The notes beneath the pieces were generated by a model. The model saw only the letters and a program-made list of their open reading frames with translations, made no database searches and was not told the DNA's origin. A DNA stretch of 64,000 bases from the NCBI RefSeq assembly GCF_007830435.1, contig NZ_VLLC01000014.1:1-64000 (forward strand), written 5' to 3'. Both the position numbers and the translations under genes were made by a program. Below are positions 39,093-57,200 of the stretch, one piece after another; position 1 is the stretch's first letter; every line of letters begins with the position of its first letter. This DNA comes from Desulfobotulus alkaliphilus (GTDB lineage Bacteria > Desulfobacterota > Desulfobacteria > Desulfobacterales > ASO4-4).

Positions 39093-40043
39093 CTACACAT
39101 GGTTACGCAGGGCGAGCTCTGCGGGATGAGGGTTGAGATAGCTCTGCCGGGCCAGATATGCCACATCATATTTACGGACATGGTGGCTGAACAGGGTGAT
39201 GGGCACAACCAGGGGGAGCTGACCATCGTGATAGCGGGTGATGATGTCAAGGAGTTCATGGCGTTCCGCATCCGGAAGCAGGCGTTTGAAGTATCCCAGC
39301 ATGTGCTGTAGCACATTGGTGTTTTTTTTTCGGGTACTTTTCCGCGACAAAGCTGTCAGCAGAAGTTTTTCATATTCCCGGAAGAGGCTTTCCCTTTCCA
39401 GTTCCTTTCCCTTTGCCACCAGCTTTCCCATTTCCCTGTAATGCTCCGGGCTGTGGCCGAGAATCAGCAGTTTGTTATCCGTATGAAAGGCCACCAGATC
39501 ACCCTGCTTCATGTTCTGCCTTGCCCTGCGCCATCGGGTCAGGGCAAAAATTCGTATGATGAAGTTTTCACGAAGCACAGGGTCATGCAGTCTGCCATCC
39601 TCTTCCACAGGAATCAGGGGGAATCGTTGCATGAAAGCCTTTGCAAAAATTCCCACCCCGTTTTTTGTGGCTGCATTGCCTGTCTCACTGTAAACCTTGA
39701 CCCTCTCCATGCCGGAACTTGGGGATTTTGACTTAAAAATAAAACCACAGAGATCTTTTTCTTCCAGCCTGTCCAGACGTCCGGCGGCCCATTCCTGCAT
39801 CTTCTGCGTATGGTCTTCTCCGCTTTTACGGGTGATGAGACGGGGATTTTCCGGGTTTCCCACAAGGCGCAGGGATTCCCTTGGGATGGGCATACCGCAC
39901 TCCACCTCAGGGCAGACAGGCACATATTCCACATACTGGCCCAGGGTATGGATGAGGTAGGGATCTCTCTGGTGTCCACCGTCATACCGGACATTGTTTC
40001 CCAGAAGACAGGAGCTGATACCAAGGGTGATGGTCTGGGGCAT
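39093..40043 (-). CDS. DUF523/DUF1722 (YbgA-like) protein
   Basis: 316 residues. An N-terminal DUF523 domain (GISSCLLGNNVRYDGGHQRD, CPEVECGMPIPRESLRL, AAGRLDRLEEKDLCGFIFKSKSPSSG) is fused to a C-terminal DUF1722 domain (GDLVAFHTDNKLLILGHSP, LSRKSTRKKNTNVLQHMLGYF). Such fusions are widespread and uncharacterised. ATG 40043 follows AAGGAG. A transposable element ends 26 bases upstream of the start and could supply its promoter. Confidence 0.93.
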   Translation of the reverse strand: MPQTITLGISSCLLGNNVRYDGGHQRDPYLIHTLGQYVEYVPVCPEVECGMPIPRESLRLVGNPENPRLITRKSGEDHTQKMQEWAAGRLDRLEEKDLCGFIFKSKSPSSGMERVKVYSETGNAATKNGVGIFAKAFMQRFPLIPVEEDGRLHDPVLRENFIIRIFALTRWRRARQNMKQGDLVAFHTDNKLLILGHSPEHYREMGKLVAKGKELERESLFREYEKLLLTALSRKSTRKKNTNVLQHMLGYFKRLLPDAERHELLDIITRYHDGQLPLVVPITLFSHHVRKYDVAYLARQSYLNPHPAELALRNHV

Positions 40044-40060: not shown

Positions 40061-40068
40061 AATTTAAG
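40061..40068. repeat. Target-site duplication, left copy (AATTTAAG)
   Basis: 8-bp direct repeat that is identical to 40544-40551 and flanks the element at 40069-40543. Confidence 0.8.
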
Positions 40069-40146
40069 GTAATTATTCAGCACAGTTTTCCAAGTACCAT
40101 AGTTGCAAGACAGATGCACAGGCCCCAGGCTATTTGCCTGTGACGC

Positions 40147-40220
40147 AATCCGGCACTCAAGCTGAAAAGCTCAAGCCCTTTACGGGAGCAAAAATGCCTA
40201 TGGGTCTTGAGTGCCGGATT
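40147..40220. repeat. Nested hairpin insert 1 in MITE copy 1
   Basis: AATCCGGCACTCAAG (40147-40161) pairs perfectly with CTTGAGTGCCGGATT (40206-40220). This stem is absent from MITE copy 2, and is present in copy 3. Confidence 0.7.
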
Positions 40221-40352
40221 CGGGAGCTTCTTGCCCTGTGCGGAAGCGGCAAAAACTCGCCGCCACAGGCAGGATAAGCTTTTTGATTACCATGGCAGGC
40301 TTAAGAACGCTGCCTTTGTGGCGGCTCAGACAGTTTGCCGCTTTTATAGCAC

Positions 40353-40422
40353 TCCGGCACTCAAGCTTGCAAAAGCCCTTTGTTTTCATCGCAGGCTCTG
40401 GGTTTATGGCTTGAGTGCAGGA
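40353..40422. repeat. Nested hairpin insert 2 in MITE copy 1
   Basis: TCCGGCACTCAAGC (40353-40366) pairs with GCTTGAGTGCAGGA (40409-40422), one mismatch. It is a diverged relative of insert 1, and is absent from copy 2. Confidence 0.6.
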
Positions 40423-40543
40423 CAAAGCTCTAATCCGAAACGATTGCAATGTCACTTGCAAATAGCCACGGAGCCTTGCAACAGTACGATGCTGCTGTAA
40501 TTACAGCATTGTCAGTTTAAAATAAACTGTGCTGAATAATTAC

Positions 40544-40551
40544 AATTTAAG
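40544..40551. repeat. Target-site duplication, right copy (AATTTAAG)
   Basis: Matches 40061-40068 exactly. Confidence 0.8.
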
Positions 40552-40557
40552 ATGATA

Positions 40558-41748
40558 TCAAAAGTCAAAGGATGTTTTGGGTCCATACAGCAGAAATTCT
40601 TCTGCCTGCCTGCAATAGTCTCTTTTTGCTTCCAGCCAGTTATTCCGGAGTTCTGCAACACTTTCACCGGCGCTGATGGCTTCCCTCAGCCGTTTGCTTC
40701 CCAGTATCATATCCATGGGGAGCATCTCGTTTTCGTATTCATAGGGGGGATTTTTAAAGGAGAAATTATTTGGGTGCCTTTCCATGACGGCCTTCAGAAG
40801 ACAGAGGCTCTGATAGCAGGAGTTGTGTTTTTCGGGTGAGGTTACATGGATCTGGAATCCTCTGCAGGCCTGTCCCGCCTGCTTGCCCGATGTGGGTTCA
40901 AAAATGACGGGCCTCAGAACACTGCCCCCAAGGGCATCTTCGGGGATTTTTCTGATAATGGCATCCGTATCCAGCCAGGGCGCACCGAAAAATTCAAAGG
41001 GCTTTGTTGTGCCGCGGCCTTCGGAGAGATTGCTTCCTTCCCAGAGAACCTGTCCGGGGTATACCAGAGCCGTTTCCGGTGTGGGCATATTGGGTGAGGG
41101 CAGTACCCAGGGGAGGCCGGTGTCTTTGAAAAACATCTCACGCTGCCATCCGGTCATGGGAACCACGGCCAGACTGGCAGCGATGTCAAACCTTTTATTG
41201 ATCATCAGGGCATACTCACCGATGGTCAGTCCGTGGCGCATGGGAATGGGATAAAGGCCTACAAAGGAGGCATATTCCGGCTCGAGGACATTGCCTTCCA
41301 CCTTCATGCCGGATACGGGGTTGGGCCGGTCCAGTACCAGTATGGAAACATCCGCATCCCGTGCGGCTTCCATGCACAGGGCCAGGGTGTGTATGAAAGT
41401 GTATACCCTTGTGCCCACATCCTGAATATCCACAAGCAGGATATCGATGTGGGCCAGCATTTCCTTTGTGGGGATGCGGGTTTCCCCGTAAAGGCTGAAA
41501 ACAGGTATGCCCAGCACCCTGTCATGGCTGTGATCCGACTCAATCATGTTGTCCTGTTTTTCCGCAAAAAAACCATGCTGCGGAGAAAAAAGGGCAGAGA
41601 GCTGGCCGGGAAAACGCCGGTGGATCAGATCCTTTGCATGGGTAAAATCCGGACCGATGGAAGCGGGGTTGGCCAGAAGCCCCAGTTTCTTGTTTTTAAG
41701 AAAAGCAGGGGGATTTTTCAGAAGATTTTCAAGTCCTGTCTGTGTCAT
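40558..41748 (-). CDS. namZ: DUF1343 exo-beta-N-acetylmuramidase-like protein (NamZ)
   Basis: 396 residues from ATG 41748 after GGAGAAA; longer in-frame readings upstream are not needed. Family blocks are GLLANPASIG, FSPQHGFFAEKQDNM, LLVDIQDVGTRVYTFIHTLALCM, LDRPNPVSG and LPSPNMPTPETALVYPGQVLWEGSNLSEGRGTTKPFE. NamZ-type enzymes release N-acetylmuramic acid from peptidoglycan fragments. There is no signal peptide from this start, so it would be cytoplasmic unless the start is further upstream. It is followed by MITE copy 1. Confidence 0.85.
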   Translation of the reverse strand: MTQTGLENLLKNPPAFLKNKKLGLLANPASIGPDFTHAKDLIHRRFPGQLSALFSPQHGFFAEKQDNMIESDHSHDRVLGIPVFSLYGETRIPTKEMLAHIDILLVDIQDVGTRVYTFIHTLALCMEAARDADVSILVLDRPNPVSGMKVEGNVLEPEYASFVGLYPIPMRHGLTIGEYALMINKRFDIAASLAVVPMTGWQREMFFKDTGLPWVLPSPNMPTPETALVYPGQVLWEGSNLSEGRGTTKPFEFFGAPWLDTDAIIRKIPEDALGGSVLRPVIFEPTSGKQAGQACRGFQIHVTSPEKHNSCYQSLCLLKAVMERHPNNFSFKNPPYEYENEMLPMDMILGSKRLREAISAGESVAELRNNWLEAKRDYCRQAEEFLLYGPKTSFDF

Positions 41749-41886
41749 GGTTTCTCCGAAAATACAGGTGGGCTGGATTATGCCTTTGCCTTGGACTTTG
41801 ATTGTGCTACAAATCAGAATAAGTTGCAAACAAGGCCTTCTTTGGCAAGATATTTCCTCCCATAAGACACTGTTCAGGTGCCCCCC

Positions 41887-42297
41887 ATGAATCCTTGTAT
41901 CTTTTTTGTAGATGATGAACCCCGCATTCTTCAGAGTCTCCGCCGCCTTTTTCGAAATGAGGTCTATGAGATTCATACCTTTGAAAATCCTCTGGAAGCC
42001 CTTGATGCCATCATGGATGCCCGGCCATGGGTTGTGGTTTCGGACCAGCGCATGCCCCGGATGACGGGCCTTGAGCTGTTGGGAAAGGTAAGGGATCTGG
42101 CCCCTGAGACCGTTCGTATCATGTTGACCGCCTATGCCGATGTGGATGTGGCAGTGGGCGGGCTTGATTCATGGACCGTGAATGTTTTTTTGAAAAAACC
42201 ATGGGATGATGCGGAACTGCTCATGGAAATACGCAATGCCATTAAATACCACCGGCATCTTGTGGGCGGTGGCCCGGAACCCGGACAGGGTATGTGA
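41887..42297 (+). CDS. Response-regulator receiver domain protein
   Basis: 136 residues, essentially one REC domain: VDDEPRI acidic pocket, phospho-acceptor D53 in VSDQRMP, Thr/Ser in MLTAYAD, and Lys in LKKPWDD. No output domain. The ATG at 41887 has no strong ribosome-binding site; GTG 41878 is an alternative. It is the first gene of the chemosensory operon; its sensor partner is probably CheA. Confidence 0.88.
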   Translation: MNPCIFFVDDEPRILQSLRRLFRNEVYEIHTFENPLEALDAIMDARPWVVVSDQRMPRMTGLELLGKVRDLAPETVRIMLTAYADVDVAVGGLDSWTVNVFLKKPWDDAELLMEIRNAIKYHRHLVGGGPEPGQGM

Positions 42298-48815: not shown

Positions 48816-48960
48816 GTAAATATTCAGCAGATTTCCCCTCTCCCTCTGGGAGAGGGGGCAGGGGTGAGGGCAAAAAGCTGTAAAAAGCACCTTGTTCATT
48901 GGCTTTTTATAAATATTTTAGAAGATTGCAAAAGTCAGGAAGCCCATGCTGAATAGTTAC
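48816..48960. mobile_element. Short MITE relative (145 bp) between cheB-like gene and hisC
   Basis: The ends GTAAATATTCAGCA (48816-48829) and TGCTGAATAGTTAC (48947-48960) are inverted repeats matching those of the larger MITEs with few differences. Flanks TGATTGGG and TAATTGGG resemble an 8-bp duplication with one change. Inside lies a G+C-rich hairpin, CCCTCTCCCTC / GAGAGGG, followed by AGGGGTGAGGG, which looks like a common bacterial REP-type sequence. Confidence 0.65.
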
Positions 48961-50107: not shown

Positions 50108-50209
50108 ACATCAGGATTTTTCTTCCGGGCTGTCCCTAAGGTGCTTTTTTTGTAACTTCTGAGTAACTTCAAAAGTTACTTTATGACAAAACGCCGCAAC
50201 ACGGCGTGG

Positions 50210-50553
50210 GTTGCTGTTCTGTACAGCTTTCCAGGTACCATACCTGCCAGGCAGATGCACAGGCACCCAGGCTGTTTGCCCGTGACGCAATCTTATTCGG
50301 GAGTTTCTTGCCCTGTGCGGAAGCGGAAAAAACCCCCCGCCACAGGCAGGATACAATCTTTTATTACCATGGCAGGCTTCAGCACGCTGCCTTTGTGGCG
50401 GCTCAGACAGTTTGCCGCTTCTTTCGCACAGGCCTTCGAATCTCTGATCCGAAACGATTGCAATGTCACTTGCAAACAGTCAGGGTGCCTTGCACCAGTA
50501 GAAGCTGCTGCAATTACAAGATTGGAATTTCAGAATAAACTGTGCTGAGCTAC
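50210..50553 (+). mobile_element. MITE copy 2 (older, diverged ends)
   Basis: Aligns with MITE copy 1 along its length: the core around 50290-50460 is very similar, and the 30 bases at the left end align base by base without gaps. The right end retains AAACTGTGCTGA. The two nested hairpins of copy 1 are missing, so this copy shows the pre-insertion structure. No clear target duplication remains. It lies between hisC and cmk, ending 38 bases before the cmk start. Confidence 0.75.
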
Positions 50554-50591
50554 TATATTTTTTTAGACGTAAAGAGGCGAAAAAAGATATT

Positions 50592-56939: not shown

Positions 56940-57200
56940 GTACTTATTCAGCACAGCTTATTCCGAACTGCCAATGCTGTAGTTACGGCAGTTTTGTACT
57001 GTTGCAAGGCTCCGTGGCTATTTGCAAGTGACATTGCAATCGTTTCGGATTCCGGCACTCAAGATCCCTAAGCATTTTTGCTCCCGTAAAGGGCTTGAGC
57101 TTTTCAGCTTGAGTGCCGGATTGCGTCACGGGCCAATAGCCTGGGGCCTGTGCATCTGTCTTGCAGGTATGGTACCTGGAAAACCGTGTTGAACAGTTAC
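56940..57200 (-). mobile_element. MITE copy 3, upstream of dnaE
   Basis: Reverse orientation relative to copy 1. The left edge GTACTTATTCAGCACAGCTT resembles the reverse complement of the right repeat. The right edge AAACCGTGTTGAACAGTTAC matches the other end with several changes. Perfect 8-bp flanking duplication GAAAGAAG. It carries only one nested hairpin (about 57051-57122) and lacks the stretch that lies between the two hairpins of copy 1. It ends 21 bases before the dnaE start. Confidence 0.8.

What the first reader, a model, noticed from the sequence alone, without database searches (positions are those of the whole stretch)
40061..40551. Non-autonomous IS66-like transposable element with perfect ends and target duplication
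The element at 40069-40543 has 20-bp perfect terminal inverted repeats starting GTAA and an 8-bp duplication AATTTAAG on both sides. GTAA ends plus 8-bp duplications are characteristic of the IS66 family. No transposase is inside, so it would have to be moved in trans. The family appears undescribed from what can be seen here.
Basis: partly seen in the sequence, partly recalled or inferred. Interest (0 to 1): 0.75.

Follow-up and report, generated by a model that had tools for sequence, protein, structure and literature searches.

The report
High-copy orphan IS66-type MITE family
A 475-base transposon remnant with no gene of its own is one of roughly 250 related copies scattered through this bacterium's genome. 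Its ends match those of IS66-group jumping genes, so it was most likely spread by such an element, which is now missing from this genus except for a decayed fragment.

Summary
The own genome carries 332 end matches. In a 1.41 Mb sample I paired 89 elements; 62 have an 8-bp duplication with at most 1 mismatch, against 2.1% expected by permutation. A congener has this locus empty, and a second locus shows an exact empty site with one target copy. Single-ORF IS66 elements in other genera of the order carry the same terminal 11-14 bp (GTAA[C/T]TATTCAGC[A]) with exact 8-bp duplications. The experimentally mobile ISBst12-group element ISDge4 has GTAACTGCTCAGCA, 13/14 identical. End type follows transposase clade. 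The only intact IS66 element in this genome belongs to another clade with different ends, so it is probably not the mobiliser. A decayed fragment of the right clade survives in the congener. The family is therefore an orphaned IS66 (ISBst12-type) MITE of this genus, about 250 copies, mostly intergenic. Not foreseen: copies are modular (185/262/347/475 bp), built from nested palindromes, and modules differ between species at one shared insertion. New member of a known kind, moderate interest.

The parts
40069..40543 (.). 475-bp non-autonomous element: core + module A + central hairpin module + module B
40061..40068 (.). left copy of the 8-bp target duplication AATTTAAG
   Evidence: single copy (diverged by 1 substitution and a 1-bp gap) in congener G002
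40544..40551 (.). right copy of the 8-bp target duplication AATTTAAG
40069..40088 (+). left terminal inverted repeat GTAATTATTCAGCACAGTTT
   Evidence: first 14 bp identical to the end of IS66 element L241
40524..40543 (-). right terminal inverted repeat, perfect complement of the left one (in most other copies one end reads GTAACTGTTCAG)
40148..40219 (.). module A: palindrome TCCGGCACTCAAG ... CTTGAGTGCCGGA
40220..40348 (.). central hairpin module (boundaries approximate), the module found in 347-bp copies
   Evidence: fold z = -10.5 for the whole element
40353..40422 (.). module B: palindrome TCCGGCACTCAAG ... CTTGAGTGCAGGA
40423..40455 (.). right half of the core, CAAAGCTCTAATCCGAAACGATTGCAATGTCAC, conserved through the family
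56940..57200 (.). second copy in the window: 261 bp, one module, TSD GAAAGAAG on both sides
50152..50556 (.). related copy with the alternative extended end GTAACTTCTGAGTAACTT; TSD 7/8, degenerate right end
48816..48960 (.). 145-bp element with the same end type but a different interior; TSD TGATTGGG/TAATTGGG, 7/8

Best explanation
The element is one copy of a high-copy MITE family confined, among genomes searched, to one genus. A single-ORF IS66 transposase of the ISBst12 type, acting in trans, recognised the tips GTAA[C/T]T[A/G]TTCAGCA and inserted the element into AT-rich intergenic DNA, duplicating 8 bp. Shown by sequence: ends, duplications, empty sites, copy number and shared tips with IS66 elements. 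Inferred: the identity of the transposase, the trans action, and that the partner has since been lost, leaving the family orphaned. At this locus the element inserted between two same-strand genes (NamZ-like exo-beta-N-acetylmuramidase, then a DUF523/DUF1722 protein) that were about 31 bp apart before insertion. Any effect on their expression is untested.
For: Perfect TIR and TSD. 332 end matches in the own genome; with the tighter two-letter consensus, 90 and 10 in two congeners and none in 386 other genomes. 62 of 89 paired copies have TSDs with at most 1 mismatch against 2.1% in permuted flanks; TSD AT content 75% against 48% for the genome. Empty site in congener G002 at this locus and an exact one at C4:94383 with a single TGACGCAG. 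IS66 single-ORF elements L238-L242 have ends GTAA[C/T]TATTCAGC and exact 8-bp TSDs, and end type tracks the transposase tree. Element L231 (the same element as L181) carries PF03050 at E=3.8e-48. A decayed transposase fragment of that clade lies in G002:C2:120749-120955, 50% identity to L237, E=2.7e-11. ISDge4 of the ISBst12 group moved in the laboratory with end GTAACTGCTCAGCA and DR CCTCGATG (PMC12898284).
Against: No autonomous element with the full 20-bp end was found in the three congeners. Beyond about 14 bp the MITE ends do not match the IS66 elements, so it is not a simple deletion derivative of any of them. The relic in G002 is not flanked by these ends. Short-read assembly may hide identical or recent copies. 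Only 35% of the genome was paired in detail.
Confidence: 0.86

Rival explanations
1. The mobiliser is the intact IS66 element on contig C66 of the same genome (L063:2927-4832).
For: It is the only intact IS66 transposase in the genome. It shares GTAACT..TCA, and some MITE copies carry an alternative end GTAACTTCTGAGTAACTT that resembles its GTAACTTCTCAATAAGT.
Against: The main MITE end matches it at only 10 of 14 bases, against 11-14 for the other clade. It lies in a different transposase clade. It is absent from congeners that carry the MITE.
Confidence: 0.08
2. A non-IS66 transposase with convergent GTAA ends and 8-bp duplications moves the element.
For: 8-bp duplications occur in several IS families (general knowledge). 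No autonomous partner with the full ends was found.
Against: The terminal 12-14 bp are shared specifically with one IS66 clade and with ISDge4. No other transposase was found bounded by these ends within 6 kb in the sample; the one 1.5-kb copy found is a MITE interrupted by an IS630-like element.
Confidence: 0.04
3. The repeat is a structured RNA or regulatory palindrome family kept by selection, and its mobility is incidental.
For: It folds far better than shuffles (z about -10.5 on either strand), has modular palindromes, and is depleted from genes and enriched between convergent genes (33 against 10, p=0.0006).
Against: TSDs and empty sites show transposition. No Rfam family matches. It folds equally well on both strands, as any palindrome does. 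Promoter- and terminator-like hits are at the chance level. Intergenic bias is expected from purging of harmful insertions.
Confidence: 0.05

Closest known systems
ISBst12 group of the IS66 family (for example ISDge4 of Deinococcus geothermalis, PMC12898284)
   Same: terminal GTAACTGCTCAGCA (13/14 identical to the common MITE right end GTAACTGTTCAGCA), imperfectly matched ends, 8-bp duplication
   Different: ISDge4 encodes its 449-aa transposase; the MITE encodes none
Single-ORF IS66 elements of other genera of the order (L238-L242)
   Same: ends GTAA[C/T]TATTCAGC[A], exact 8-bp TSDs; L241 left tip identical over 14 bp
   Different: 1.7-1.8 kb with a transposase of about 470-540 aa; sequence unrelated beyond the tip
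Classical IS66 elements (for example ISPsko1, PMC12888890)
   Same: GTAA start
   Different: end reads GTAAGCGTCCGGCG, only 9/14 alike; three ORFs
Bacterial MITEs such as MITECca01 of Cardinium (PMC9769881)
   Same: short, gene-less, IR-bounded, 169 copies, mostly intergenic
   Different: derived from IS982, with the parent element still present

Membership tests
MITE | short, no transposase, terminal inverted repeats | tested here: met
MITE | target site duplication on many copies | tested here: met
   62 of 89 copies with at most 1 mismatch
MITE | high copy number | tested here: met
   332 end matches; about 250 elements extrapolated
MITE | precise empty site in a relative | tested here: met
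   for this locus; exact at C4:94383
IS66, ISBst12 group | GTAA terminus with 8-bp target duplication | tested here: met
   compared with elements
IS66, ISBst12 group | tip sequence shared with elements that carry an IS66 transposase | tested here: met
   14/14 with L241, 13/14 with ISDge4
IS66, ISBst12 group | encodes DDE_Tnp_IS66 (TnpC) | tested here: not met
   no transposase inside; so it is an IS66-type MITE, not an IS66 element
IS66, ISBst12 group | autonomous partner with the same full ends in the same genome | tested here: not met
   only a different-clade element on C66
IS66, ISBst12 group | mobilised by an IS66 transposase | not testable with these tools
   needs a transposition assay

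The most novel reading that the evidence does not exclude
The family is a modular MITE whose palindromic cassettes are gained or lost in place at one fixed point of the core. At one shared insertion, G000 has the 185-bp core and G002 has the same copy with the hairpin module. The family may also use two different end types with one transposase.
Probability: 0.25. Interest if true: 0.5.

Novelty: new member of a known kind. Interest (0 to 1): 0.36.

Why it matters
IS66 transposition is poorly characterised, and searches of the held library found no described IS66-type MITE. A family of about 250 copies that outlived its transposase gives natural data on which end bases an ISBst12-type transposase needs and how palindromic cassettes are lost.

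Tried and rejected
Outside hits to the 20-bp end in Paenimyroides and two viral contigs are chance matches inside genes (reading N-Y-S-A-Q), with no partner end. The 1508-bp copy in G002:C1 looked like an autonomous element but holds an inserted IS630-like transposase. Rfam gave only chance-level hits. The CCCTCTCCC repeat inside 48816-48960 also occurs without these ends, so it is a separate repeat. An apparent empty site at C2:109172 did not hold up on inspection. The first transposase tree used wrong ORFs for some loci and was redone.

Full report
OBSERVATION. The window has AATTTAAG at 40061-40068, GTAATTATTCAGCACAGTTT at 40069-40088, its perfect complement at 40524-40543 and AATTTAAG again at 40544-40551. 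Nothing inside encodes a transposase. The element sits between two genes on the minus strand, a NamZ-like protein (40558-41976) and a DUF523/DUF1722 protein (39093-40043). Without the element and one duplication they would be about 31 bp apart.

COPY NUMBER. The own genome (4.0 Mb, 95 contigs) holds 166 + 166 matches to the 20-bp end with up to 3 mismatches and none to the reversed control. With up to 1 mismatch to the two-letter consensus GTAAYTRTTCAGCACAGTTT there are 259 in this genome, 90 in congener G002, 10 in congener G001 and none in 386 further genomes. In 1.41 Mb that I took out and paired there are 89 elements. 46 have a perfect 8-bp duplication and 16 more have one mismatch, against 2.1% when flanks are permuted (p about 5e-82). 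This extrapolates to about 250 elements. Duplications are 75% A+T against 48% for the genome.

EMPTY SITES. Joined flanks of this element align along their whole length (89% identity) to one place in G002, which reads TATAAAA-TGAAGATGATATCA where the window flanks read TATAAAATTTAAGATGATATCA. The element and one target copy are absent there, with a 1-bp gap and one substitution in the target word. At C4:94383-94578 the congener has exactly one TGACGCAG. In G001 the two flanking genes lie on different contigs, so no test was possible.

STRUCTURE. Copies fall into length classes with a fixed order of parts. The 185-bp core can carry, always at its centre, a hairpin module (347 bp, about half of all copies), one TCCGGCACTCAAG palindrome (about 262 bp), or palindrome + hairpin + palindrome (about 475 bp, 11 copies, including this one). 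The whole element folds back on itself (z about -10.5). At one insertion shared with G002 (C4:148074) this genome has the 185-bp core and G002 has the 347-class form at the same place, so modules change in place. Loss of a palindromic module by replication slippage is my inference; gain cannot be excluded. Some copies carry an extended end that starts GTAACTTCTGAGTAACTT, joined to GTTGCTGTTCAG. Several of these have matching duplications outside that extended end, for example GAAAATCT at C9:18456-18903.

LOCATION. Flanks lie in ORFs of 150 aa or more in about 32% of cases against 82% for the genome, and convergent gene pairs outnumber divergent ones 33 to 10. This fits purging of harmful insertions and does not by itself show a function. 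Copies of the 347-bp class are 91% identical on average and at most 98%, so no very recent burst is visible, though short-read assembly can hide identical copies.

WHICH TRANSPOSASE. The only IS66 transposase in this genome lies on contig C66 in a 1.9-kb single-ORF element with 25-bp perfect ends GTAACTTCTCAATAAGTGTAGGCAT; congeners have none. Its relatives in the order have the same type of end with exact 8-bp duplications. A second clade has ends GTAA[C/T]TATTCAGC[A], also with exact 8-bp duplications: L238 TATAAATA, L239 GGATTTTT, L240 ATAAAAAC, L241 TATAATTT, L242 AAAACGCC. End type follows the tree of the proteins. The left MITE tip is identical to that of L241 over 14 bp. The literature gives an independent anchor: ISDge4, an ISBst12-group element seen to transpose in the laboratory, has ends GTGACTACTCAGCA and GTAACTGCTCAGCA and made the repeat CCTCGATG (PMC12898284). 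In G002 a decayed fragment of a clade-2 transposase remains (50% identity to L237 over 62 aa, E=2.7e-11), not linked to these ends.

VERDICT. The evidence places it with the ISBst12-type branch of IS66, not with classical three-gene IS66. It is not an IS66 element itself, because it has no TnpC, and the specific partner is missing, so mobilisation by IS66 remains an inference. Whether it is registered in ISfinder could not be checked. Searches of the held papers found no IS66-type MITE, which is weak evidence because most subscription papers are absent.

Noticed in passing
window 48816-48960: 145-bp element with the same end type around a CCCTCTCCCTCTGGGAGAGGG repeat; that repeat also occurs elsewhere in the genome and in G002 without these ends.
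   Followed up: partly
G000 C3:251277-251352 and C12:83662-83737: The extended end unit (about 58 bp, with two small hairpins, ...AACGCCGTAACACGGCGTGGGTTG) occurs in tandem next to some copies.
   Followed up: partly
L063 (contig C66) 2927-4832: Intact single-ORF IS66 element directly beside an RHS-repeat-like reading frame; no target duplication is visible around it.
   Followed up: partly
G002:C1:136137-137644 (L038): An IS630-like element has inserted into a MITE copy.
   Followed up: yes
L267:2280-2390 (G000 C13, about 42280): Very weak 37-aa similarity to an IS66 transposase (E=0.008), possibly another relic.
   Followed up: no
G000 C2:59781-60030, C2:81883-82130, C2:318043-318347: Runs of N inside 347-class copies show that the assembler collapsed the central hairpin, so their lengths are too short.
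   Followed up: partly
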